A DNA stretch of 34,525 nucleotides, taken from positions 1-34,525 of the forward strand of contig JAWXAU010000079.1 in the NCBI GenBank assembly GCA_034439655.1, given 5' to 3'. Shown piece by piece: positions 6,552-33,941 of this stretch. The translations under genes and the position numbers were made by a program. This DNA comes from Bacteroidota bacterium. GTDB taxonomy: Bacteria > Bacteroidota > Bacteroidia > UKL13-3. The notes beneath the pieces were generated by a model. That model searched no databases and was not told the DNA's origin. It saw only the letters and a program-made list of their open reading frames with translations. How positions within the stretch are numbered: position 1 is the stretch's first letter; every line of letters begins with the position of its first letter.

Positions 6552-8102
6552 TTAATCTGCCTGAGCTGCCTTTTGTTTTTTCAGTTTCAATAAATCTTTG
6601 TAATGTATGTTTTCTATTTTGCTTTCCACCCAAGTAATAAAATCAAATATCTTGAAGAATTTTTTCTCAAACGGGTCTTCCTGAATCTTAAGCAAATCTT
6701 TTTTAAATTTTATATAAGCACTGTTTATTTTCTTGTCATCATCTAAAGTTATATAGTTTTTCATAAATTTGAGAATGGCTTTTTCGACCGTAAATAATTT
6801 TTCGCGTTTGTTCAAAAAGCGATAAGTAGAATTAATAGCATACTGTAAATAAAACCCATCATCTAATTTTAAATGGATAATCAAATTAAAAATACGTGCA
6901 AAACAGTGTGCATCTTCACGCATTTCCACCTCACGCATATTGATAATTTTATTAATCCAGAACACTGCCTGCTTATAGTCTTCGCCTCCATAAGCAATCA
7001 ATGAACTACTAATAAATATGCGGCACGAGTCTTCTATATTTAACGACTTTTCATATAGCGGCAATTCTGTTTTAATATTTTTTAATAGTTCAAGACAAGT
7101 AGTATAATCTATAATCTGCTGATAATATATTAGAGAAAAAACAGATGTTTCCGTAAATATTTTTTGCTTCAATTCCACATCATAAGTTTCTACATTTTTT
7201 AAGATATTTATATATATCGGTAATTCTTTTAATTTGCCAGCATGATACGCAATATATAAAAAATCAGGAATTAATATAATATAGTTTTTCTTATACTCAT
7301 TAATCATCCATTCGTTTTGCTCCCATATAGAAACCTGCTTACGTTTGGTTTTATAGGCATCTTCGGTTTCATTGATAATCCATAAGTATATACTGTGTAG
7401 TTCGTAAAATGAATTTAGTGAATATAATGTTTTGGCGGAACTACTATCTTTCATCAGGTCATTTTGCAATAACTTTTTTAATACCCCCATTTTATCATCG
7501 CTGCGTATATATTTTTCGTTTTTCAATACTTTTTGCGATTCAAAAAACAGGCTCATGAACATACTTTTATTGCTCAATTTTTCGACAATCAGTTTTTCTT
7601 GGTCCATTATTTTGTCGAGGCCGTGTTTGATATCGCCCATTCGCATATCTACAATCATCTCTTTTTCTATTTCCAAAATCTCCAACATTCGGGTCATTTT
7701 CTCGTGTTGGGTTGCTATGTCGAAGGCTTTGGTTAGGTACTTAACTGCTTGTTTAAACAAGCCTTTTTGCTGTAATAGCTTCACAAACCCAATCATATCG
7801 TTAATTTTAAAATCGATACTTTTTTTGCGGTGATATTCCGTAAGTGATTTTAATATGAGCTCGAATAATTGATTTTTGAGAACTGGCAAATGTGTAATTT
7901 TAAGTTTACTTTTCACCATTACTTTTAACTTGTCATCATCAAAACTTTTTTGACCATCAATGGCGTCAAATAGCATTACATAATTGAACTGGGTCTTCGT
8001 TTCATCATTGTCATTCTTTTGAGCAAATACTTTGAAATATCTTTTCTCGTTTTTCGAAAGTGATTTGATAAGCCGGAAAAGTTGTTCGCGTGTTTCCATC
8101 AT
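6552..8102 (-). CDS. Helical-repeat cytoplasmic protein of unknown function, 516 aa
   Basis: The protein is rich in lysine and almost entirely helical, with TPR-like pairs of amphipathic helices (for example KLLQQKGLFKQAVKYLTKAFDIA near residues 108-130 and GGEDYKQAVFWINKIINMR near 375). It has no signal peptide. The N-terminus (ETREQLFRLIKSLSKNEKRYFKVFA) looks like a conserved opening block of a Bacteroidota-restricted family. ATGs at 8102 and 8099 are both possible. It diverges from the fibre-protein gene across a 162-base gap and converges with the small membrane protein. A scaffold or protein-interaction role is an inference from the repeat structure. Confidence 0.82.
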   Translation of the reverse strand: MMETREQLFRLIKSLSKNEKRYFKVFAQKNDNDETKTQFNYVMLFDAIDGQKSFDDDKLKVMVKSKLKITHLPVLKNQLFELILKSLTEYHRKKSIDFKINDMIGFVKLLQQKGLFKQAVKYLTKAFDIATQHEKMTRMLEILEIEKEMIVDMRMGDIKHGLDKIMDQEKLIVEKLSNKSMFMSLFFESQKVLKNEKYIRSDDKMGVLKKLLQNDLMKDSSSAKTLYSLNSFYELHSIYLWIINETEDAYKTKRKQVSIWEQNEWMINEYKKNYIILIPDFLYIAYHAGKLKELPIYINILKNVETYDVELKQKIFTETSVFSLIYYQQIIDYTTCLELLKNIKTELPLYEKSLNIEDSCRIFISSSLIAYGGEDYKQAVFWINKIINMREVEMREDAHCFARIFNLIIHLKLDDGFYLQYAINSTYRFLNKREKLFTVEKAILKFMKNYITLDDDKKINSAYIKFKKDLLKIQEDPFEKKFFKIFDFITWVESKIENIHYKDLLKLKKQKAAQAD

Positions 8103-8230
8103 TTATAATTTTTGGCCTAACAAAAGCAGGTGTTTGGAATTTAAGAAAGGACTCTTTTAAAATATTGATAGACAGTTTTAAAAATTGAACATAAATTATG
8201 TAGCAATGTAATAAATTAAAAAAATTGTCA

Positions 8231-8260
8231 TTGAAACGTGAAATTTATATGCCATATTTG
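8231..8260 (+). promoter_or_regulatory. Candidate promoter of the fibre-protein gene
   Basis: TTG (8231-8233), a 19-base spacer, then CATATTTG (8253-8260), one mismatch from TAnnTTTG. It lies four bases before the ATG at 8265, predicting a leaderless transcript. Spacing is ideal; the first base of the -7 box is not. Confidence 0.45.
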
Positions 8261-8264
8261 AACT

Positions 8265-9845
8265 ATGAATAAGCTCAAATAAAAATTCTTAGTGTTATGC
8301 TGTATGGCATCACTCTGCGGCTCTGCCCAAGTGGGCATTGGCACCAATACACCTGACTCATCTGCCATATTACACTTGGAAAGTACAAGTAAGGGATTTT
8401 TGCCAACACGAATGACCATTGCACAAAGGGATTCGATTGTGAACCCTGCCAATGGTCTGATAGTCTATATTACCGACAGCAATGATTTTTCATTTTATAA
8501 AGACAGTAGTTGGGACTTCTTATCATCTTATAGGAAAGTTTGGTCAATTTACGGTACGGCTACCGATCCTTTGCCCGATACTTTTATTTGGTTGGGAACA
8601 ACGGATAATACCCCACTCAAGTTTATGGTGAATGGAGGCAGGGCAGGTATAATAGACCATAACAATATGAATGCCTACTTAGGTTACCAGTCGGGAACTT
8701 CAAGTGGGTTTACTGCCTCGCGAAATGCATTTTTGGGTGACTCTACAGGTTATTTAACCACAACAGGTCGTGATAATTGCTTTATAGGCAAAAGTGCTGG
8801 ATTTAGCAATACAGTAGGCAAGTACAATAATTATGTGGGATCTATGTCTGGATACTCCTCGTCTACAAGTGATGATAATAATACTTTGGGTTATCAAACA
8901 TTATTTAATAATATCGATGGTATTAAAAATGTGGGTATTGCCAGCAATTCATTGTTTAATAATTTAACGGGCGATTGCAACATAGGTGTAGGGAATCAAA
9001 CATTATATAGTAATACTGTGGGAAATTTTAATATCGCTTTAGGTTGTAATGCTTTGAGCAACAACTCTGTTGGTAGTTATAATATCGCTATTGGCAGTTC
9101 TTCCATGGAAAACTTTGGAAATGGCGATTTGAATGTAGCCATTGGAGCCGCTTCAATGACAAACAAATTTGCAGGTACATCAAATGTGGCCATTGGAGCA
9201 GGGGCATTGGTAAATGACTCGATAGGAATGGGCAACACAGCTATAGGAAAAGAATCGTTAAAAAATAATAAAATTGGAAATGGCAATATCGCTATAGGTG
9301 CAAAAGCGGATGTATCATCTCCAAATCTTTTTAATGCAACTATGATATGATTTGATGCATCTGTCGATTCAAGCAATACTGTGAGAATAGGAAACTCACA
9401 AGTGAAACAATGGGGCTTTGGGGTAAATCCGGGGCAAGGTAAAGTGCTGGCAGTAGGTCATGATAGCACCAATGGTAATGGTGCATACTTATCAAGTGGA
9501 GGTGCATGGTCCAATTCATCATCATTCATCAAAAAGGACCGTATACAATTATTAGATGGGAATGATATATTGAAGAAAGTAATGCAATTGCATATAGATG
9601 GCTGGTATTATAAAGGCACCAATGAGTATCATATTGGTCCTTATGCGGAAGAGTTCTATAATACATTTAATACAGGAACCGACCAACATTATATAAGCAC
9701 GGTAGACCCTGCAGGTATTGCTCTTAAAGCTATTCAGGAATTAAATACGCAAAACCAAAATTTGAAAGCTGAGAATGAATTGTTGAAGCAGAGATTGGAT
9801 AGGTTGGAGCAGTTGATGGCTCAAGAAAATACAATAAAGAAATAA
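8265..9845 (+). pseudogene. Trimeric fibre protein (YadA-like head, S74-like tail) with two in-frame stops
   Basis: Reading in one frame from ATG 8265 gives a signal peptide broken at codon 6 by TAA (8280-8282): MNKLK, stop, KFLVLCCMASLCGSAQ. The frame then stays open through VGIGTNTPDSSAILHLES and a run of 24-25 residue repeats of the type N-x-AIG-x-x-AL-x-N, typical of the beta-roll heads of trimeric adhesins, until TGA at 9348-9350. The same frame resumes with FDASVDSSNTVRIGNS and ends in an S74-like tail (DPAGIALKAIQELN) plus a terminal coiled coil. Both stops are one substitution from a fitting codon (AAA to TAA for lysine, GGA to TGA for glycine). A GTG at 8292 could restart translation but would lack a proper signal peptide. 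I read this as a recently inactivated surface fibre gene; readthrough is the alternative. Confidence 0.8.
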
Positions 9846-9861
9846 TAAAGAGATATTATTT
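9840..9861. terminator. Shared hairpin between convergent genes
   Basis: AAATAATA (9840-9847) pairs with TATTATTT (9854-9861) across a six-base loop. The hairpin includes the stop codon of the fibre gene and touches that of the minus-strand GldM-C gene. It is AT-only and weak, but placed where a bidirectional terminator is expected. Confidence 0.4.
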
Positions 9862-10559
9862 TAATCTGTTACCACTAAAGCAATTTCCTTCAACCAAATA
9901 TAAGGTCTGATTGGATTTATAGTTTCAATACTGGTGAAAACTACGAGATCACCATTTTTAACTTTGCTTAGCACTTCTTTCAATTGTTCACTGAGCACCG
10001 CACCAGTTTCAGCAGATTGGATAATCACAGTAGCATCCTTCCCTGTTGAGTCTTTCACTTTGGTAGTGCACATAAATATAAATTTAGAAACTTTATATCC
10101 ATTTCCATTAAAAATAAAATCTGATGGAAACTCATAATAGATAGAATCAAGTGACACAATTGTTTTCTTTGATATTTTTCCCGATTGTGCAATTCCCACT
10201 TTCAAAATCGCTTTGGGCATGGGCATTACCCTAAAGTTAGTAATACCTTTCTGAACTCCCTGATATAAAGTTGTTATAGAAATTTCCTTGGGAGCATTGG
10301 GATATACCACTACTACATAGTGTCCGAAACTAGTCATCCTCACATCGCCGCCATCGGAACAACGCAGACTGATAAACTCCTGTCCGACCTCTGGAATAGC
10401 TACAGAAATGGGGTTTTCCATTCCTGTATATAAAACCTTCATATTGTCAACTGCTATAATAGCATTTTGGGTAGTATCAACTTTGGTTTGTGCTTTTGAT
10501 ATCTGGAGGCTTACTACAGAAATCAGCAATAAAAGTAAATGCAAAATTTTTCTTTTCAT
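9861..10559 (-). CDS. Secreted GldM C-terminal-domain protein, 232 aa
   Basis: GldM/PorM is the periplasmic shaft of the type IX secretion motor. This protein has no N-terminal GldM domains or anchor. It has a cleavable signal peptide (KILHLLLLLISVVSLQISKAQ), followed by the two last GldM-type beta domains: NMKVLYTGMENPISVAIPEV near residue 40, FRVMPMPKAILKVG near 110, and a closing block with VSKFIFMCT and VLSKVKNGDLVVF. It may be a stand-alone relative that docks on the secretion machinery or binds surface partners. A truncated paralogue lies just upstream (10579-10839). It converges with the fibre-protein gene. Confidence 0.8.
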   Translation of the reverse strand: MKRKILHLLLLLISVVSLQISKAQTKVDTTQNAIIAVDNMKVLYTGMENPISVAIPEVGQEFISLRCSDGGDVRMTSFGHYVVVVYPNAPKEISITTLYQGVQKGITNFRVMPMPKAILKVGIAQSGKISKKTIVSLDSIYYEFPSDFIFNGNGYKVSKFIFMCTTKVKDSTGKDATVIIQSAETGAVLSEQLKEVLSKVKNGDLVVFTSIETINPIRPYIWLKEIALVVTD

Positions 10560-17237: not shown

Positions 17238-17253
17238 TTATTATATTTGATAG

Positions 17254-17283
17254 TTGTAAAAAGGCTGATTTATAATAAATTTG
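17254..17283 (+). promoter_or_regulatory. Strong Bacteroidota promoter of the ATPase/TOPRIM-like pair
   Basis: TTG (17254-17256), a 19-base spacer, then TAAATTTG (17276-17283): a full match to TTG-N19-TAnnTTTG. It lies just after the dnaE stop and 20 bases before the ATG at 17304, so the pair is transcribed independently of dnaE with a leader of about 14 bases. Confidence 0.65.
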
Positions 17284-17303
17284 CCTTTTAAATAAAAGTA
17301 CTC

Positions 17304-18392
17304 ATGGCAAAAAAAATTACCGAAAGTTACTTTCTTACTGATGTGGAGATTAAAAACTTCAAATCAATTAAGCATTTAAAGTTTAAGCCTAAAAGAGTAA
17401 ACTTATTCATTGGAAAACCTAATAGTGGAAAGTCAAATTTGTTAGAGGCTTTGTCATTACTTGGCGAGACTTATAATGGTTATGCAGGTCCATTTTTGGA
17501 AAGTTTTATCCGTTTTGACTCTTATAGTCAGTTGTTTTTTAATTTAGACCAATCAAGCCCAATCGAAATAAAAACAAATTTAGGAAATGCGTGGTTGCGT
17601 TACTTGAAGGGAAATAATATACATGACCTAATTATAGGTATTAGTGAAGAAGAGTATAAAAAAAATGTACTGTCTCTTTAAAGAACAAATGATATGGAAC
17701 AGTACGTTCTTTCTAATAAAAGCCCGCATTTTATACTGAAACCATTTTATAAGAGCTTTCAAAGTAATGATAATTATCAAATGGAGCAAGGTATTGAAAC
17801 TCCAATTAAAAGATATTATTTTCAGCCCAAACTAGTTAAAAACTACTCCGATAGTTTTTCTTTGTTCCTCAAAACATCAGGTGAGAATCTATATTCGATA
17901 ATTGAAGGTGATGCCCATCTAAGAGAAATAGCGGGAGATTTTTTTAAAGAGTACAAATTAGATTTTGTATTTGACATAGATAAGAAAAAATTTTTGATAC
18001 AAAAAAGGATTGGAAATATTGTATATAATTGGACTTTGACAATGACTCCTGATACTTTTCAAAGACTGATTTATTATTTAGCTGCTATATATTCAAATAA
18101 TAATTCTGTGTTACTTTTTGAAGAACCAGAAGCACACTCCTTCCCGCCGTATATTTCTATGATAGGTGAGCTGATAGGAAAAAAAGCGGAGAACCAATAT
18201 TTTATTTCCACCCATTCTCCTTACGTATATCAGTCAATCGTTTCGAACACAAACAAGGATGATTTAGCTGTGTGGGCTTTGTCATACTCCAAAGGCCAAA
18301 CAAAGATGGTGCAGTTGACAGAAAAGCAGATTGGCGAAACTTTGAGTGATGGAGTTGATGTATTTCAAAATATAGAACGCTATACTAAATAA
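17304..18392 (+). pseudogene. SMC/OLD-like AAA ATPase split by one in-frame TAA
   Basis: One continuous frame of 362 codons reads as a single ATPase, apart from TAA at codon 126 (17679-17681). Part 1 has the usual opening VEIKNFKSIKHLKF and a Walker A GKPNSGKS at residues 37-44. Part 2, with an ATG at 17694 five codons after the stop, has TPDTFQRLIYYLAAI, Walker B VLLFEEPEAHS, and the D-loop/H-switch ISTHSPYV. These are hallmarks of the AAA_15/AAA_21 ATPases related to OLD, RloA and RecF. Neither part can hydrolyse ATP alone, because Walker A and B lie on separate pieces; they could work only by readthrough or by complementing each other. It has its own promoter and lies three bases before a TOPRIM-like partner. 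I infer an anti-phage or DNA-maintenance system, probably inactivated by nonsense mutation. Confidence 0.8.
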
Positions 18393-18395
18393 TAT

Positions 18396-18881
18396 ATGGT
18401 AGTTTTATATCCCGAATGTCATACTGAGAAATTCCTTTGTGAGTTCATTGGTTATTCCAAAAGCAAGATAATTACGTGTAATGGAAAACCAAATGTAATC
18501 AATAAACTCAGATCGTCGGATAATGATATTATTGCAATTGGTATTGTTGATGAAGTTCCAATGAAGACTCAGCATCCAGATTGTAAATTGTATATTGAGA
18601 AAGCCAATTATTTAGTTATTAGTCTATTACAACAAAAGAATAATGCGAAATATTTTTTAATTGAATTCAAAGAAGAATTTGAGCCTTGGATTAAAAATAT
18701 AAATAAGAAAGCAAAAGTTGATCCCGAAAGATATAATAGTAAAATGGACAGGCTCCATGAATATACAGGAGTAAATATTCCAGATAAGTATAAAAAGTTT
18801 CTTAAAAAAATATTTGATTCATATCCAGACCCAATTAATAAGTTTAAGCAATGGATAAAAGATTGCGATAATAATAGCTAA
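18396..18881 (+). CDS. Small TOPRIM/RloB-like partner protein, 161 aa
   Basis: The start lies three bases after the ATPase stop, so the two are co-translated. The N-terminus VVLYPECHTEKFLCEFIG resembles the EGxTE-type first motif of TOPRIM and RloB/DUF4276 proteins, with Glu7 in the expected place. About 45 residues on, IAIGIVDEVP occupies the position of the DxD motif at the end of a hydrophobic strand, but only the first acid of a DxD and an adjacent Glu are present. The rest is helical and lysine-rich with no recognised domain. In OLD, PARIS and RloAB-like pairs such a protein is the nuclease or effector of the ATPase. This one is shorter than AriB or the OLD TOPRIM domain. Assignment is by motif pattern and context only. 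Confidence 0.62.
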   Translation: MVVLYPECHTEKFLCEFIGYSKSKIITCNGKPNVINKLRSSDNDIIAIGIVDEVPMKTQHPDCKLYIEKANYLVISLLQQKNNAKYFLIEFKEEFEPWIKNINKKAKVDPERYNSKMDRLHEYTGVNIPDKYKKFLKKIFDSYPDPINKFKQWIKDCDNNS

Positions 18882-18986
18882 AAAAAATAAAAGGTCATAT
18901 TTCTCCATTTTTTTTTTCACGGCAACCTGTTTTCATGCTCAAGTCCAATATCTTTATAGTAGATCTTTAAAAAGTCAAAAAAAAAA

Positions 18987-19475
18987 ATGAAAAATACATT
19001 TACTGCAATAGATTTTGAAACGGCACATGGAAAAAGATGGAGCATTTGTCAAGTGGGCTTGGTACGTGTTGAAAATGGAATTATTACCGACAAATTATCA
19101 ATTTTAGTGCAGCCGCCTGATAATTTTTATTTCTATAGAAACACAGAAATTCATGGTATTACCCCTCAGCAAACACGGCATTCACCAACCTTCGATGGTG
19201 TATGGGGGCAGCTAGAACCCTATATTAAAGAACAAGACGTAATAGCTCACAATGGTTTTGCATTCGACTTTAATTGTTTAGAACATACACTTGCCTATTA
19301 TGATATCGCCAAACCACAGTATAAAGGATATTGTACCTATAAAATATATAAGGCTAACTTAGCTTCGCTATGCAAGCAATACAATATTCCTTTAAATCAT
19401 CATGATGCACTGAGTGATGCGATGGCTTGTGCGAGGTTATATGAGATGCATATTGCCGCTACAAATTATAAATAA
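18987..19475 (+). CDS. DnaQ-like DEDDh 3'-5' exonuclease, 162 aa
   Basis: This is an exonuclease-fold protein of the polymerase III epsilon family, acting on 3' ends of DNA or RNA. All catalytic positions are visible: D9 and E11 in AIDFETAHG, D94 in IAHNGFAFD, and the H139-x-A-x-x-D144 signature in HHDALSDA. SICQVGLVRVENG and EIHGITPQQT are typical of the cd06130-like subgroup. At 162 residues it is a bare catalytic domain with no polymerase-binding or BRCT tail. The leader is A-rich (11 A's just before the ATG), and a T10 run lies about 70 bases upstream. It stands alone between the ATPase pair and a frameshifted gene. It may be general repair or part of the accessory block. Confidence 0.9.
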   Translation: MKNTFTAIDFETAHGKRWSICQVGLVRVENGIITDKLSILVQPPDNFYFYRNTEIHGITPQQTRHSPTFDGVWGQLEPYIKEQDVIAHNGFAFDFNCLEHTLAYYDIAKPQYKGYCTYKIYKANLASLCKQYNIPLNHHDALSDAMACARLYEMHIAATNYK

Positions 19476-19488
19476 AATAAAACATAAC

Positions 19489-20299
19489 ATGACAGATACA
19501 TATAATAAATTTTCCCAAGAATATGATAAATTATTCGCTGAGAATATCGTCAGTTTTATAAAAAATATAAAAGCTAAGAAGGATTTAAAAGGCAATTACA
19601 GACTTTTTTACCCCTCGTTTGGTGTTAAAGAAAATGAAAAGTGTGATTTCATCATTTATGGGCAGGCGGTAAAGGATTGGAGCCCTGATATAAGTCTACT
19701 AGAAGATAAGCGATCAATTGCGGATAAAGTAAAGGAAAGTATAATCTATTCGAATTCATATTTAGAAAATCATTGTCCGCTTGATTGGGTGAATGTATAT
19801 TGGAGTAAAAAATCCTACACACTTAATACCTTAAAGAAAGAAGCGGAGGAATTCTATCCCCCTATAGATTATACTACATCTAGATCATTTTTTTGGGAAT
19901 GTAGTATATAAGTTCATTTCTGATTATTATGAAATAAGCAGAGATAGTAATGATTGGGCTAAAAAGATCATTTGGTCAAATTTGTATAAGATATCGCCTG
20001 ATTATGGTAATCCAGAAATTGATGAACGTGTGTATCAATTAGATTTATCAGTTGAATTATTAAAAAGGGAAATAGATGAAATCAAACCTAAGTTTTGTAT
20101 AATACTTACAAATGAAGAATGGTGGAAGCCCTTTAGAGAAAAGTTAGAACAAAAAAAATTGGAACACAATAGCGGACCAGAAGTGATATCATTTGAAGAG
20201 TATAATGATACTAAAATAATATTGACCACTAGGCCCTTTAGCGGCAGCCATGAAAAACATGTTTCTCAAATCCTCAAACTAACGGAAAGAGCAAAGTAA
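19489..20299 (+). pseudogene. Frameshifted hypothetical protein, possibly uracil-DNA-glycosylase-like
   Basis: Frame 1 runs from ATG 19489 and stops at 19911 after RSFFWECSI. Shifting by one base at the T7/G3 run around 19888-19897 gives a smooth continuation, FFxNVVYKFISDYYEISRDSNDW, which stays open to 20299, for about 270 residues in all. So a single extra base in a homopolymer explains the break. The joined protein has FIIYGQAVKDW, then IIWSNLYKISPDYGNP, and near the end RPFSGSHEKHVSQIL. The order of a GQ loop, a strand with Asn and a late S-x-x-H resembles the uracil-DNA-glycosylase superfamily, but this is a weak fold-level guess. It starts 13 bases after the exonuclease stop, so the two are probably cotranscribed. 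Confidence 0.65.
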
Positions 20300-20305
20300 T
20301 ATACA

Positions 20306-27860: not shown

Positions 27861-30800
27861 ATGAATAAGAGCACACAACACCATACGAGCAATTTGGCGT
27901 GTTTCACCATTTTGGTGTTCCTGTTCTTGGGGCAATATGTACTTGCCCAAGTACCTGCAAACGATGACTGCTCTAAATCCGAAGTACTTACCATCGGTAA
28001 TAATGGATTTGCCCTTGCCACTATTTCTTCAAGCAATGTGGACATGACAAATGCCACTATTCAACAGGGAGAGAATTTTCACAGCATCCAAAAAAGCAGT
28101 AATAATAATGTAAAGTCAGTGTGGTTTAAGTTCACCATACCTACCGCCCGATCCATCAATTTAAAATTGAACCAAGTGGGCAATACCATTCCACAAAGTG
28201 ATGCAGGTATTACAACTTACTTTACAAGCAATTGCTTGCCCGCAGTAAGTACCGTGGACAGTTCTAACCTTACCCCGCTCGATAAGTTTGGCAGCACCTC
28301 TACCTCCTGCTCTTACCCGGGTACTTATCTGGTGCAAATTTCTGCCAAGAACGGCGTTAAAGGTAAAATATATATTGAGCTCACCTTGTCGGAACCGGGT
28401 GTATTGAATAGTTATGATATGATGGCAAAGGCATATTCGTTCGGCACGATATCTACTGCTAGCAAATTTATAAGTCACGATATTGGCTGCGAGAGTATAG
28501 AAGACCAACTTGAATATTGCCAGGCATTGGGCAATGAAGCAAAAACATTTACCCAAAGCAGTTGGTACACTTTTTACACCCCATCCTATATAGATTTTTT
28601 GAGGGTGAATACTTCTTGGGTCAATAATGGTAACAAAGACAGCCGCATCGTTTATCGCTTGTATGAAGGCGATGCAAAAACCAGCAGCCTAGGTTCACTT
28701 AGTTTGGTTGATGGTTGCAAAATAAGTACAACAGGAGATGGGAAATATGATTACTTATGTACCATAAAACCCAATACCGTATATAGTGTACAGTTATTGT
28801 TTTACAGTTATCAGTCGGGCACAGTAAAGCTCGATGTAACCATGCTGGGCAAAGCTGCCAGCCAAGCACCGGTTCCTGTAGTGGGGCAAATGGCATCATC
28901 GAATAAATTGGGCGTTATTACCAGTAATATGGCAACTACTAAAAAATTGACCGATTATATGGGTTGCAATTCACGCCTGAGTTTAGCAGCAAATACTTGT
29001 GGCGATGTGAACCCTTTGAATGGTTATAAAAACAGTTCTGGAGATAACCTTAATCTTGCAACCTGGCTCACTTTCGAGCTAGATGTAGATGCAAGTGTAG
29101 CGATAACCCTTGCCCACTGGGGCCATACTTGCAATTTTATATATGGTAGATTATTCCGCAAGGATGCAGGTGCCGATTGCAGCTCAGGCCCAAGCTTGAG
29201 CGACTTAGAAATTGAATTTAGCAGCGACACAAAATTTCCTTGTTTGGCACGTGGTAAATATTCATTGCAAGTGTTGGGTATACTAAGCAGCGACCCAATG
29301 AATTGTGGCAATGCACTGGGAGACCAACTAGAAATTACAATCAACACTGTGCCCTTGCCTATCAATAATTATGGGCTTGCACAAGCGGGTAAAATTGACA
29401 ATATAAATAACTTTAATGCAATAAAGTATGATAGTCTTTACAGTTCCAATATCGGGTCGTTCGATTGTACGGATAATGTGTTACCGGAGTCGAACCCCTG
29501 TTCTAATAATTACACCAAAGCACTCTACCGTCGCTTTAATATTGCCGATGCCGATGCTGATGGGGTGAACGATAGTATGTATATAACATTAACCAGGCTT
29601 TCTTTGTCAGCTTTTGGTTATTTCGACGATTATAAAATATATAGTGGCGATGCAAATGCCTTGGCTGTTTCGCAAAATAAATTTTCGGCGGGGCAAGTTT
29701 TGAGTGGCCTCAATTCACTATATCATTGTATGCAAACACCACAGAACAATAGCTTTTGCTTGTTGCCAGGCCCACATACGGTAGCCACTTTTGGGTTTAA
29801 AAATAATGTGAGCGATTCGGACAAGATTAGAATGAGAGTATATAGAAAAATTAAAAGCCGTTTCAATAATCCCAATACTCCCGATACTACATGGGGAGAT
29901 ATAAATACGTTGCCAATTGAACAAAAAATAATGGCGATATCCGATACAGTCACTTGTGTAGATAATCCAGCTACCATTGATAACTTAACCCCTTGCAACG
30001 ATTTTACTAAATTATTCTATCGGGTATTTACAGTGAGCAAATATACGGTTGCACGATTCTCACCACTTAATGAAAGTAGTCATAAGCTCAGACTGTTTAC
30101 GGGCGATTGCAGGAATGGTCTCAATACACTCAAGTATTATAAAGATTCAGCAGGCAAATGGGGCTGCGATACGCCTATTCGCATACATTATTGCTACCCA
30201 CTTCCACCGGGCACTTACACATTGGTTTCCTATTTATCGGGAAAAGGTTATAATAGAAACGATATTACCGATGAGAACAAGGTTACCCGAGCTACCAATG
30301 TGTATGCATATATATATGATACTCCCAAGCCGCCCAGATACGACTATCCTTATAAGGCCAATACTACAAATTATAGTAAGAAACCCTTCGATTTAAAAGC
30401 TGGTGGGTTGGGCTATCAGCAAGATATATCGCAGGATTATCCTTTGGATACAGAGTACTTTAATTGTAATAATAATTTACCTTATAAAGTGCATCCCACT
30501 ACCTGGTTTTGCAACGATAGAATGAACCGAACGGCTTATTATGTTTTCAATATAAAACAGGAATCATATCTCACCTTAAAAAATACAAATACCACCAATA
30601 TTAGTTATACAGTATATGCACGAATATATAATTTCGATGTACGCAAAGACTCAAGCCGGATGGCTACCGACTCGGCATTGCAGCCATGTATGATAGCAGA
30701 TAATTATATACAAATTTGCAAAATGCAAGCTGGCACTTATACGATACTTTTCAATGTGAGCGATTCGATGATAGGCGATTCTTTAATGTTTTCAGCTTAT

Positions 30801-33800
30801 GTAAGCACGGTACCTTATTCACGTTTCGACCATGCAAATTTGGCTTACGATTTTGGCAATATACCTGGAGACGGAAATTTTTACGACCGTAAGCAAGGGG
30901 ATTCGACTTATTTGAAAACCCATGCAGCAAGCTTCGACTTTTTTAACTGTACCACAGGTGCTAGTGCTAACGACCCCGGTGCCGACAAATATACTGGCAT
31001 CTACGATCCCTCTGTTTCATATCCTATACAGAACAATAGAATAAGATATAATACACCACCCAATATGCAAAATGCCATCAGACGTAATTTGTGGTATACT
31101 TTCACCGTGGGAGGAGCAGGCAGGATAAAAGTATATTGTTATGAAAAACCAGATCCAAATCGCTCAGCAGGATTGGGGAAAATATTTAAAATATATAAAA
31201 GCAATATAAATGGGGCTATACCTTTTACACAATTGCAAAAAACGGGGAAAGTCGATTCTACTATCTTTCAAGGACTTTCTGAAGTAGCCAATAATATAGG
31301 TTCTAACGATAGTTTGCTGCCTACTGCCGGTTTTTTATTCAATACTTGTAGCGATACTTTGCTCACCAGATATTATATAGTGGTCGATCAAGCAGCAACG
31401 CAAGTATATCCAAACGATTGGGTGGAGCTTTCCGTAAAATATGATAGTATAAATTCTTATTTGCCCAATAACGATCATTATATAAATGCCAATGTGATAA
31501 ATGGTTTAAAGCAGTTTAAACCTCCATATAAAGATTCGGCATTGAGCAATGGAATTTTCGAAGGCTTTTATAGCTCTATTGACTGTGCCACCAAAGCAAG
31601 TACTGACCAAAATCTTTGTGGCAATCAAACAGTTTGGTATCGATTTGATGTGGGCCAAGGTAAAAAATTGAGGTGGAATTACGACTTGGTAAATATTGAT
31701 ACCAATAGTAGGATTACCTTGAGTTGGAATGAAGATATCAAACTTTATAAAGAAATAGTAAAAGGAGATTCCACTTCCACTGGGCTTGTGGAGCAAATAA
31801 GTTATAGCACAGCTAATTTGTTGGGCAAAGACTGGCAACTAACCTGTGCTACATCGGGTCGTTACTATATCATGTTCACAGGGTGTAATCATATTTTTTT
31901 ACGAAGATATTTACCCAGAATTTGGCTCGACAATGACCAAGGAGATTATTGTAGCGACCCTATAGATATTAATATAAGTGGTGCGGGAACAGCACTGGGC
32001 AAAACGGATGTATCATGCCATACATCGGGCGATTCGTATGGTGAAGACGGTTCCAATATGGGTTGTTTATATCCTATTGATTCAGGATATAAAACCACTT
32101 GGTTCAAGGTAAATATGTCGTCTACCAATAAAATGGATATGTCGTTTGCACTCGCCAATAAAACAACTGCGTCGTCTACTTTAATTCGGTATCGAATATT
32201 ATATGGTACTTGCGATGCAATGACTCCAGGCCCATGCAATGTGAGTGCATTCACCAAATTCACACTTAACTGCATGACCACAGGTGTATATTATGTGCAA
32301 GTGCAAAGCCCCGCCGATGCCCGTGGCGATGTTGAACTTTTGGTTACCTCTGTGCTTACGGCTGTTCCCAATTGCTCGCCCATCAATCCCGATTTGCCTG
32401 TGGCCGATTTTGAAGTAGAAAAAAATTGCAATTACCAACCTATTAAATTTAAAAACCATTCCACAGCCGGCACTATAATGAAATATAGTTGGGATTTTGG
32501 TTATAATAATTTAAAAGATACTGCCAAAAATCCACTGGTTTTTTATCCCATCACCCATAAAATTGATAGTTATACAGTTACCCTGAAAGTAACCAACACA
32601 AAAAATAAATTGGATAGTATCATCTCGAAAAAAGTGATATTATATCCTGTGCCCACCGCTGCTTTTGTTAGCAATGCAGGCTGTGCCGAACTAGCGGTAC
32701 AGTTTACTGACAGTAGCAATTATAATATGATAAACATTGCCAATCGCATTTGGGATTTTGGAGATACCCTTACTTCTAATGCTATAAACCCAGTACATCC
32801 CTATGCAGATTTTGGAACCAAAAATGTTTCCTTGATTATTATATCCGATCATGGTTGCACCGATACTGCTCTGCAAACTATTACGATAAACCCACCGCCA
32901 CATGCCGCATTTACTTCAAGAACGGTATGCTTGGGCGATACTATATTTTTTAATGAAACAAGTTCCATATCAGCAGGAAATATAATAACTTGGGATTGGG
33001 ATTATGGCGATGGTATACAAGAAACTATTACAAATAATAACTATAGTTCACCCTATCATATATATAATAGTTCAGGTAGTTTTTTAGTGAGCTTAAAAGT
33101 TACCTCCGATTCTGGCTGTAGTGATTTGCTAAGCCAATTGGCCATAGTAGGCGAGTACCCTGTGCCACTATTGATAGCCGACAGCCCCATTTGTTTGAAG
33201 TCTCCAGCAAACTTCTACGATTTTTCCACCATTAATAACGATTCCATTATGTCTTGGCTATGGAACTTTGGCGATGGCACTTCTTCTAAACTTAAAAACC
33301 CAACACATATTTTTAAGAAGGAAGGTTTATATAGTATAGGTTTAAAGGTAATCTCATCAATAGGGTGTAGCACCGATACTATATATATAGATAGGGTGAT
33401 TGTACACCCACGGCCTAAAAGTAACTTTAGTTTAGCACCCGATTCCGTTTCGTTTTTTACACCCACCATTACTTTCACCAATAATTCTGTTGGAGCCGAT
33501 ACTTATATATGGTACTTTGGCAATGGAGATTCCACTACCGATATAAACCCTATATATGATTATACTGATACGGGACGATATCGCGTAAAACTTATTTCTG
33601 TAAATACATTTGGCTGCAAAGATTCCTCCTTTGGGCGATTATTTATCTCGCCCGATTTTACGTTCTTTATGCCCAATACTTTCACGCCCAATGGGCAAGG
33701 GCCAGCAATTAATGAAACCTATGGGCCAGAGGGTGTTTTTAAAGGCATTGCTCAATTTAATATGCATATATACAATAGATGGGGTCAAGAAATGTTCGTG

Positions 33801-33941
33801 TCCCATCATATCACCCAGCGTTGGGATGGCACCTACCACGGTAAGCCTTGCCAGCAGGATTTATATATATATAGAATTACCTATGTCGACTATTTCAAAC
33901 AAGAGCAAAACAAGGCGGGAAAAGTGTATTTGTTGAGGTAG
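27861..33941 (+). CDS. Giant T9SS-secreted adhesin with PKD repeats, 2026 aa
   Basis: The signal peptide (CFTILVFLFLGQYVLAQ) is followed by about 1480 residues of repeated beta-rich modules of 130-200 residues. Many begin near a Cys (NDDCSKSEVL, YCSDPIDINIS) and contain a W-F/Y-T-F or W-F-K strand (SVWFKFTIP, SSWYTFYTP, TVWYRFDVG, TTWFKVNMS), like pre-peptidase-type domains. Five PKD domains follow at about residues 1513, 1598, 1679, 1767 and 1852 (motifs SWDFGY, IWDFGD, WDYGDG, LWNFGDG, WYFGNG). The end (from about 1936, FMPNTFTPNGQGPAINE to the final KVYLLR) is the gliding-motility-associated, type B T9SS sorting domain. The product is expected at the cell surface or secreted, for attachment or gliding. 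The frame is intact over 6 kb. No partner PorP/SprF-like gene is adjacent. Confidence 0.93.
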   Translation: MNKSTQHHTSNLACFTILVFLFLGQYVLAQVPANDDCSKSEVLTIGNNGFALATISSSNVDMTNATIQQGENFHSIQKSSNNNVKSVWFKFTIPTARSINLKLNQVGNTIPQSDAGITTYFTSNCLPAVSTVDSSNLTPLDKFGSTSTSCSYPGTYLVQISAKNGVKGKIYIELTLSEPGVLNSYDMMAKAYSFGTISTASKFISHDIGCESIEDQLEYCQALGNEAKTFTQSSWYTFYTPSYIDFLRVNTSWVNNGNKDSRIVYRLYEGDAKTSSLGSLSLVDGCKISTTGDGKYDYLCTIKPNTVYSVQLLFYSYQSGTVKLDVTMLGKAASQAPVPVVGQMASSNKLGVITSNMATTKKLTDYMGCNSRLSLAANTCGDVNPLNGYKNSSGDNLNLATWLTFELDVDASVAITLAHWGHTCNFIYGRLFRKDAGADCSSGPSLSDLEIEFSSDTKFPCLARGKYSLQVLGILSSDPMNCGNALGDQLEITINTVPLPINNYGLAQAGKIDNINNFNAIKYDSLYSSNIGSFDCTDNVLPESNPCSNNYTKALYRRFNIADADADGVNDSMYITLTRLSLSAFGYFDDYKIYSGDANALAVSQNKFSAGQVLSGLNSLYHCMQTPQNNSFCLLPGPHTVATFGFKNNVSDSDKIRMRVYRKIKSRFNNPNTPDTTWGDINTLPIEQKIMAISDTVTCVDNPATIDNLTPCNDFTKLFYRVFTVSKYTVARFSPLNESSHKLRLFTGDCRNGLNTLKYYKDSAGKWGCDTPIRIHYCYPLPPGTYTLVSYLSGKGYNRNDITDENKVTRATNVYAYIYDTPKPPRYDYPYKANTTNYSKKPFDLKAGGLGYQQDISQDYPLDTEYFNCNNNLPYKVHPTTWFCNDRMNRTAYYVFNIKQESYLTLKNTNTTNISYTVYARIYNFDVRKDSSRMATDSALQPCMIADNYIQICKMQAGTYTILFNVSDSMIGDSLMFSAYVSTVPYSRFDHANLAYDFGNIPGDGNFYDRKQGDSTYLKTHAASFDFFNCTTGASANDPGADKYTGIYDPSVSYPIQNNRIRYNTPPNMQNAIRRNLWYTFTVGGAGRIKVYCYEKPDPNRSAGLGKIFKIYKSNINGAIPFTQLQKTGKVDSTIFQGLSEVANNIGSNDSLLPTAGFLFNTCSDTLLTRYYIVVDQAATQVYPNDWVELSVKYDSINSYLPNNDHYINANVINGLKQFKPPYKDSALSNGIFEGFYSSIDCATKASTDQNLCGNQTVWYRFDVGQGKKLRWNYDLVNIDTNSRITLSWNEDIKLYKEIVKGDSTSTGLVEQISYSTANLLGKDWQLTCATSGRYYIMFTGCNHIFLRRYLPRIWLDNDQGDYCSDPIDINISGAGTALGKTDVSCHTSGDSYGEDGSNMGCLYPIDSGYKTTWFKVNMSSTNKMDMSFALANKTTASSTLIRYRILYGTCDAMTPGPCNVSAFTKFTLNCMTTGVYYVQVQSPADARGDVELLVTSVLTAVPNCSPINPDLPVADFEVEKNCNYQPIKFKNHSTAGTIMKYSWDFGYNNLKDTAKNPLVFYPITHKIDSYTVTLKVTNTKNKLDSIISKKVILYPVPTAAFVSNAGCAELAVQFTDSSNYNMINIANRIWDFGDTLTSNAINPVHPYADFGTKNVSLIIISDHGCTDTALQTITINPPPHAAFTSRTVCLGDTIFFNETSSISAGNIITWDWDYGDGIQETITNNNYSSPYHIYNSSGSFLVSLKVTSDSGCSDLLSQLAIVGEYPVPLLIADSPICLKSPANFYDFSTINNDSIMSWLWNFGDGTSSKLKNPTHIFKKEGLYSIGLKVISSIGCSTDTIYIDRVIVHPRPKSNFSLAPDSVSFFTPTITFTNNSVGADTYIWYFGNGDSTTDINPIYDYTDTGRYRVKLISVNTFGCKDSSFGRLFISPDFTFFMPNTFTPNGQGPAINETYGPEGVFKGIAQFNMHIYNRWGQEMFVSHHITQRWDGTYHGKPCQQDLYIYRITYVDYFKQEQNKAGKVYLLR

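What the first reader, a model, noticed from the sequence alone, without database searches (positions are those of the whole stretch)
8265..9845. Surface fibre gene with two nonsense codons in one otherwise intact frame
TAA at 8280 interrupts the signal peptide and TGA at 9348 separates the head repeats from the S74-like tail. Both are one base from the expected codon (lysine AAA, glycine GGA), and the frame is otherwise clean over 527 codons. Two substitutions without frameshifts point to a gene recently released from selection, or to a tolerated readthrough system.
Basis: seen in the sequence. Interest (0 to 1): 0.5.

Follow-up and report, generated by a model that had tools for sequence, protein, structure and literature searches.

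The report
Recently broken bacterial surface-fibre gene
A surface-fibre gene of a freshwater-type Bacteroidota bacterium carries two stop codons that its closest relatives lack, and is most likely an ordinary, recently inactivated gene.

Summary
The frame 8265-9845 holds TAA at codon 6 (8280) and TGA at codon 362 (9348), with 524 sense codons and no frameshift. Both same-genus genomes carry an intact 524-aa orthologue in the same gene order, and a third genus carries an intact 545-aa relative. Both lesions are therefore private to this genome among the sequences held. Recoding finds no support: TAA and TGA end 35 and 16 of 62 conserved genes, and none of 33 typed tRNAs reads a stop codon. Random sequence error is unlikely: of 64 orthologous own genes (25,363 codons), only this one has stops inside its body. 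The gene was under purifying selection for nearly all of its history, so it broke recently; the excess amino-acid change sits largely in one repeat block. A second accessory gene in the window, an AAA ATPase at 17304-18392, also has an in-frame stop that intact homologues lack. Best reading: a young pseudogene of a dispensable adhesin-like fibre. Leaky expression cannot be excluded without reads or peptides.

The parts
8265..9845 (+). Interrupted surface-fibre gene (527-codon frame, two internal stops)
   Evidence: intact orthologues of 524 aa in G001 and G002
8280..8282 (+). TAA, codon 6, before the hydrophobic core of the signal peptide
   Evidence: sense codon in both sisters
8283..9347 (+). 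Signal-peptide remainder, N-terminal domain and head repeats (355 codons)
   Evidence: 74% identical to both sisters
9348..9350 (+). TGA, codon 362, between the head repeats and the tail
   Evidence: sense codon in both sisters
9351..9842 (+). S74-like tail and C-terminal coiled coil (164 codons)
   Evidence: 82-84% identical to the sisters; PF13884 20.6 bits, below its cut-off of 22
8100..8264 (+). 5' flank, still largely conserved with both sisters, with an 18-base invariant block and a conserved block just before the start codon
9861..10559 (-). Convergent neighbour with GldM third and fourth domains; present and intact in the same place in both sisters
6552..8102 (-). Divergent upstream neighbour (516 aa), intact; same neighbour in G002 and G005

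Best explanation
It is a young pseudogene. A secreted Bacteroidota fibre (signal peptide, N-terminal domain, N-x-A-I-G-type head repeats, S74-like tail with coiled coil) was inherited vertically in this genus and kept under purifying selection. Recently, in this genome's lineage, it acquired two substitutions to stop codons. From the native start, translation now ends after five residues. A start further down would lack a normal signal peptide and still lose the tail that is expected to drive trimer assembly. Shown: both stops, intact orthologues, conserved gene order, strong past constraint, no recoding. Inferred: that no functional protein is made; which stop came first; that the protein is a surface adhesin-like fibre.
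For: Orthologues without stops in both same-genus genomes examined and in G005. Window against sisters: genes align in order on both sides and no other aligned sense-strand gene there is interrupted; the stops in other rows lie in ORFs antisense to real genes. Control: 614 sister ORFs gave 69 pairs, 64 distinct own genes, 25,363 codons; 62 of 64 without internal stop; of the other two one is this fibre, the other a porin whose 'stop' lies in a 5' extension upstream of a likelier start. At the upper rate from that control, two or more stops in this gene have P 0.002 (0.005 counting the porin). Branch model: omega 0.077 on the window branch against 0.046 on the sisters' branches; omega = 1 on the window branch is worse by 48 log units. 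A neutral last phase fits best at about 0.04 substitutions per base, zero not rejected. Two stops imply about 38 neutral substitutions (5-138), compatible with that.
Against: Direct relaxation is not demonstrated. The two-ratio test is not significant (lnL -3911.06 against -3912.71). The relative-rate excess is marginal (41 v 25, p = 0.064; 38 v 21, p = 0.036) and is largely local: 22 of 90 window-only amino-acid differences lie in 44 of 526 codons (265-308), and outside that block the fit hardly prefers any neutral phase. No frameshift has accumulated, and the 5' flank is still conserved. The control covers only genes with an orthologue in the sampled stretches, so it favours conserved genes. 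A second genome of the same species was not available.
Confidence: 0.8

Rival explanations
1. The gene is still expressed at a low level by ordinary leaky termination ('pseudo-pseudogene'): near-cognate tRNAs pass the TAA and TGA often enough to give some fibre, perhaps in a few cells.
For: The rest of the frame and the 5' flank are still conserved. In-frame stops with dN/dS below 1 are widespread in bacterial genes according to PMC7918605 (abstract and section 2.1 read).
Against: Two stops in series multiply the losses; neither is shared with a relative; none of 33 typed tRNAs reads a stop codon. Recent loss alone explains the low omega. PMC7918605 itself notes that such stops tend to persist only for short times at population scale.
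Confidence: 0.08
2. Consensus error or strain mixture in a metagenome assembly put stops into an intact gene.
For: The assembly is fragmented (205 contigs) and no reads could be checked.
Against: No other conserved gene of 64 compared has a stop in its body; two in one gene at that rate has P 0.002-0.005. A mixture would still mean that real cells carry the stops.
Confidence: 0.06
3. The gene is functionally split: a downstream start after the first stop gives a head protein of up to 352 aa, and the tail is made separately or not needed.
For: Mechanical ORFs exist (8292-9350 from GTG, 352 aa; 9381-9845 from GTG, 154 aa).
Against: The sisters use one 524-aa frame. The first start would give a signal sequence without its charged N-terminus, the second has none.
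Confidence: 0.04
4. The organism reads TGA (or TAA) as an amino acid.
For: Only the open frame itself.
Against: Among 62 own genes that end within 10 codons of their sister's end, 35 end in TAA, 16 in TGA, 11 in TAG, and 62 of 64 bodies hold no stop; no stop-reading anticodon among 33 tRNAs.
Confidence: 0.01

Closest known systems
Nonsense-inactivated bacterial pseudogenes (general class; e.g. Sodalis glossinidius, PMC7067036, abstract read; review PMC11078800, three passages seen)
   Same: In-frame stop codons in a gene whose relatives are intact; otherwise readable frame.
   Different: Two substitutions and no indel; strong past constraint still visible, so very young; low lesion rate in the conserved genes compared here.
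Bacterial in-frame stop codon genes proposed to be read through (Belinky et al. 2021, PMC7918605; abstract and section 2.1 read)
   Same: In-frame stops with dN/dS well below 1.
   Different: That large-scale analysis focuses on stops shared between species; here neither stop is shared with a relative, and there are two.
Peptidase_S74 / chaperone-of-endosialidase tail proteins (PF13884)
   Same: The relative in G005 passes the Pfam cut-off at the same tail position; C-terminal coiled coil.
   Different: The window tail is just below the cut-off and the sister proteins are not detected at E <= 0.01; the gene is chromosomal, between ordinary cellular genes.
YadA-type head repeats of trimeric autotransporter adhesins (motif recalled)
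   Same: Repeated N-x-A-I-G-like motifs in the middle of the protein, seen directly in the translation.
   Different: No Pfam family reaches E 0.1 in the head piece; no YadA-type anchor was found by Pfam; the S74-like tail is in its place.

Membership tests
Pseudogene by nonsense mutation | Premature stops at positions where intact relatives have sense codons | tested here: met
   Both same-genus orthologues intact at 524 aa; G005 relative intact at 545 aa
Pseudogene by nonsense mutation | Loss of purifying selection after the lesion | tested here: inconclusive
   omega 0.077 v 0.046, not significant; neutral phase 0.04 per base fits best but zero is not rejected; excess largely in codons 265-308
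Pseudogene by nonsense mutation | No functional product | not testable with these tools
   No RNA, reads or proteome held
Reassigned or suppressed stop codon | tRNA with anticodon reading TAA, TAG or TGA | tested here: not met
   33 tRNA genes found, all typed by ARAGORN, none with such an anticodon; no Ile tRNA is in the list, so the list is not complete
Reassigned or suppressed stop codon | The codon is absent as a terminator or frequent inside conserved genes | tested here: not met
   TAA ends 35, TGA 16, TAG 11 of 62 genes; 62 of 64 bodies clean
Conserved readthrough gene | Same stop kept at the same place in relatives | tested here: not met
   Both sisters and G005 have one frame without internal stops
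Peptidase_S74 (PF13884) | Score at or above the Pfam gathering score of 22 bits | tested here: not met
   Window tail 20.6 bits; sisters none at E <= 0.01; G005 relative 41.4 bits, met
Peptidase_S74 (PF13884) | Self-cleavage and assembly into a trimer | not testable with these tools
   Needs expression of an intact relative
YadA-head adhesin | Pfam-detectable head repeats | tested here: not met
   0 families at E 0.1 in window:8283-9347; 0 at E 0.01 in the two sisters
YadA-head adhesin | Beta-roll head fold | tested here: inconclusive
   AlphaFold2 model of the G002 sister: mean pLDDT 53.5, strand-rich middle and a C-terminal helix 482-522; Foldseek against PDB gave 0 matches at E <= 0.001

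The most novel reading that the evidence does not exclude
A fibre gene that is kept with two serial stop codons as a low-output state: the stops are tolerated or even favoured because they throttle, or make rare and switchable, the expression of a surface protein that phages or grazers could recognise.
Probability: 0.04. Interest if true: 0.55.

Novelty: new member of a known kind. Interest (0 to 1): 0.15.

Why it matters
Little beyond annotation: automatic gene callers will report two unrelated short genes where one broken fibre gene lies. It is a clean example of an accessory surface gene caught early in loss, with intact, syntenic orthologues in both same-genus genomes. If full-length protein were nevertheless found, it would be a strong test case for serial stop-codon readthrough in Bacteroidota.

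Tried and rejected
Recoding (TGA or TAA as sense): rejected by terminal-codon counts and the tRNA survey.

Functional split by internal starts: ORFs exist mechanically, but the sisters use one frame.

Paralogue rescue in the same genome: searches of the own genome found one weak head-repeat relative only (G000:C13, 32% identity, E 4.4e-8, a frame open at its start near the contig end) and none for the tail, so no intact second copy is held.

Long-standing pseudogene: rejected; omega = 1 on the window branch is 48 log units worse. My first reading of the mild acceleration as decay was weakened, which put 22 of 90 window-only differences into one 44-codon repeat block, and, where control genes also prefer a tiny non-zero neutral phase.

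Structure: the model of the intact sister was poor and its Foldseek search gave no match at E <= 0.001; a profile search of PDB sequences gave nothing at E <= 0.01. NCBIfam gave nothing above its cut-offs. Literature: 'tail fiber domain-containing protein' with 'Bacteroidetes' gave 0 papers; the other searches (listings seen) showed no paper on this fibre family among the titles listed.

Full report
What is there. The frame from ATG 8265 to TAA 9845 has 527 codons with two internal stops, TAA at codon 6 and TGA at codon 362, and no frameshift. Read through, it has a signal peptide, an N-terminal domain, a middle of N-x-A-I-G-like repeats, a tail resembling Peptidase_S74 and a C-terminal coiled coil. 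The Pfam evidence for S74 in the window copy is just below the curated cut-off (20.6 against 22 bits); it is above it in the relative from another genus of the family (41.4 bits) and undetected at E <= 0.01 in the two sister proteins.

The organism. The window is contig C79 of a 3.5-Mb, 205-contig assembly, 96.8% complete. A freshwater lineage is my inference from record titles.

Orthologues are intact. A search of 58 genomes (own included) with the head piece found a match in 35 of 58; the two same-genus genomes stand far above the rest with 74% identity over the whole piece and no stops. Both have a single 524-aa gene, and the tail is 82-84% identical. G005 of another genus has a 545-aa gene, beside the same 516-aa-type neighbour. 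Gene order around the fibre is the same in the window and in G002 on both sides, and in G001 downstream as far as its contig reaches. In the listed rows two other matched stretches contain stops (G046 one TAA; G057 one TGA and one TAA); the list was cut, so this is not a rate.

Sequence error or a broken genome? I compared own sequence (window, 20 sampled stretches and 30 tRNA loci) with 614 ORFs from the sampled stretches of G002 plus the G001 contig. 69 pairs passed 60% identity and half coverage, representing 64 distinct own genes and 25,363 codons. 62 of 64 had no internal stop and no second aligned piece. The two exceptions were this fibre and a porin (Pfam Porin_10) whose stop is at the sixth aligned codon, in a 5' extension ahead of a likelier start. 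At the 95% upper bound of that stop rate, two or more stops in this gene have probability 0.002, or 0.005 if the porin is counted. The second batch of G002 stretches added little. The control is biased towards conserved genes, so it speaks against random error more than against gene decay among accessory genes.

Recoding. Of 62 own genes whose end lies within 10 codons of the sister's end, 35 end in TAA, 16 in TGA and 11 in TAG. The 33 tRNA genes found in the genome were all typed and none reads a stop codon. The tRNA list lacks isoleucine and so is incomplete.

How old is the lesion? In a three-sequence codon model with stops treated as missing, omega is 0.077 on the window branch and 0.046 on the other two (lnL -3911.06 against -3912.71 with one omega; not significant); omega fixed to 1 on the window branch gives -3958.97. 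Of the five neighbouring genes in that call, FdhD, LpxD and the DNA polymerase III alpha gene show little or no window-branch rise (0.033 v 0.032, 0.048 v 0.041, 0.036 v 0.028); the two faster-evolving ones do (GldM-like 0.160 v 0.078, MobA-like 0.201 v 0.094), although intact, so a rise of this size is no proof of decay. A model with a final neutral phase fits best at 0.04 substitutions per base, with 0 to about 0.08 within two log units. About 5.2% of random substitutions in the sister gene would be stops, so two stops point to some 38 neutral substitutions (5-138). The relative-rate test with G005 as outgroup gives 41 against 25 (p = 0.064) and 38 against 21 (p = 0.036); the 516-aa neighbour gives 9 against 5 (p = 0.42) and a 117-aa gene 2 against 3. 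Against a simple reading of this as decay, 22 of the 90 window-only differences fall in codons 265-308, with no clear rise in third-position differences; without that block the best neutral phase is 0.02 per base and zero is only 0.28 log units worse, and intact control genes themselves prefer about 0.005. So: constrained for nearly all its history, stops recent, relaxation itself not proven. The branches are long (several neutral substitutions per codon), so all these figures are rough.

Flanks. The 5' flank is still conserved with both sisters, including an 18-base invariant block and the bases just before the start, as expected of a recent loss.

A second interrupted gene nearby. In an A+T-rich stretch without counterpart at that place in G002 (17.3-20.3 kb), the AAA ATPase gene 17304-18392 has an in-frame TAA at 17679. 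Homologues of 358, 373 and 338 aa in three other genomes align across it as single frames. A further gene from 19489 seems to continue in another frame after a run of seven T at about 19889; no relative was found among 58 genomes, so that one rests on reading alone. Lesions in this window thus fall in accessory genes and spare the conserved ones, which is what gene loss looks like and random error does not.

Verdict. An ordinary, young pseudogene of a chromosomal Bacteroidota fibre.

Noticed in passing
17304-18392: AAA ATPase gene (AAA_15/AAA_21 pieces) interrupted by an in-frame TAA at 17679; intact homologues in three other genomes align across it. It is followed by a 161-aa gene at 18396 whose relative lies beside the same aquaporin-type gene in G001.
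   Followed up: partly
19489-20299: A gene that appears to change frame near a run of seven T at about 19889; no relatives among 58 genomes.
   Followed up: partly
17240-20300: Low-G+C stretch between the DNA polymerase III alpha gene and an aquaporin gene, absent at that place in G002: a likely insertion site for accessory genes.
   Followed up: partly
L039:527-2209: G002 has a 560-aa gene with a type IX secretion tail (PF18962) beyond the fibre's upstream neighbour; no counterpart in the window was seen.
   Followed up: no
9861-10559: Small protein made of GldM third and fourth domains only, fast evolving (40-42% identity to the sisters), next to the fibre in all three genomes of the genus.
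   Followed up: no
8265-9845, codons 265-308: Window-only amino-acid differences cluster in one block of head repeats without a clear rise in silent differences, as if a repeat had been exchanged.
   Followed up: partly
27861-33941: 2026-aa PKD-repeat protein with a CHU_C type IX secretion signal domain.
   Followed up: no
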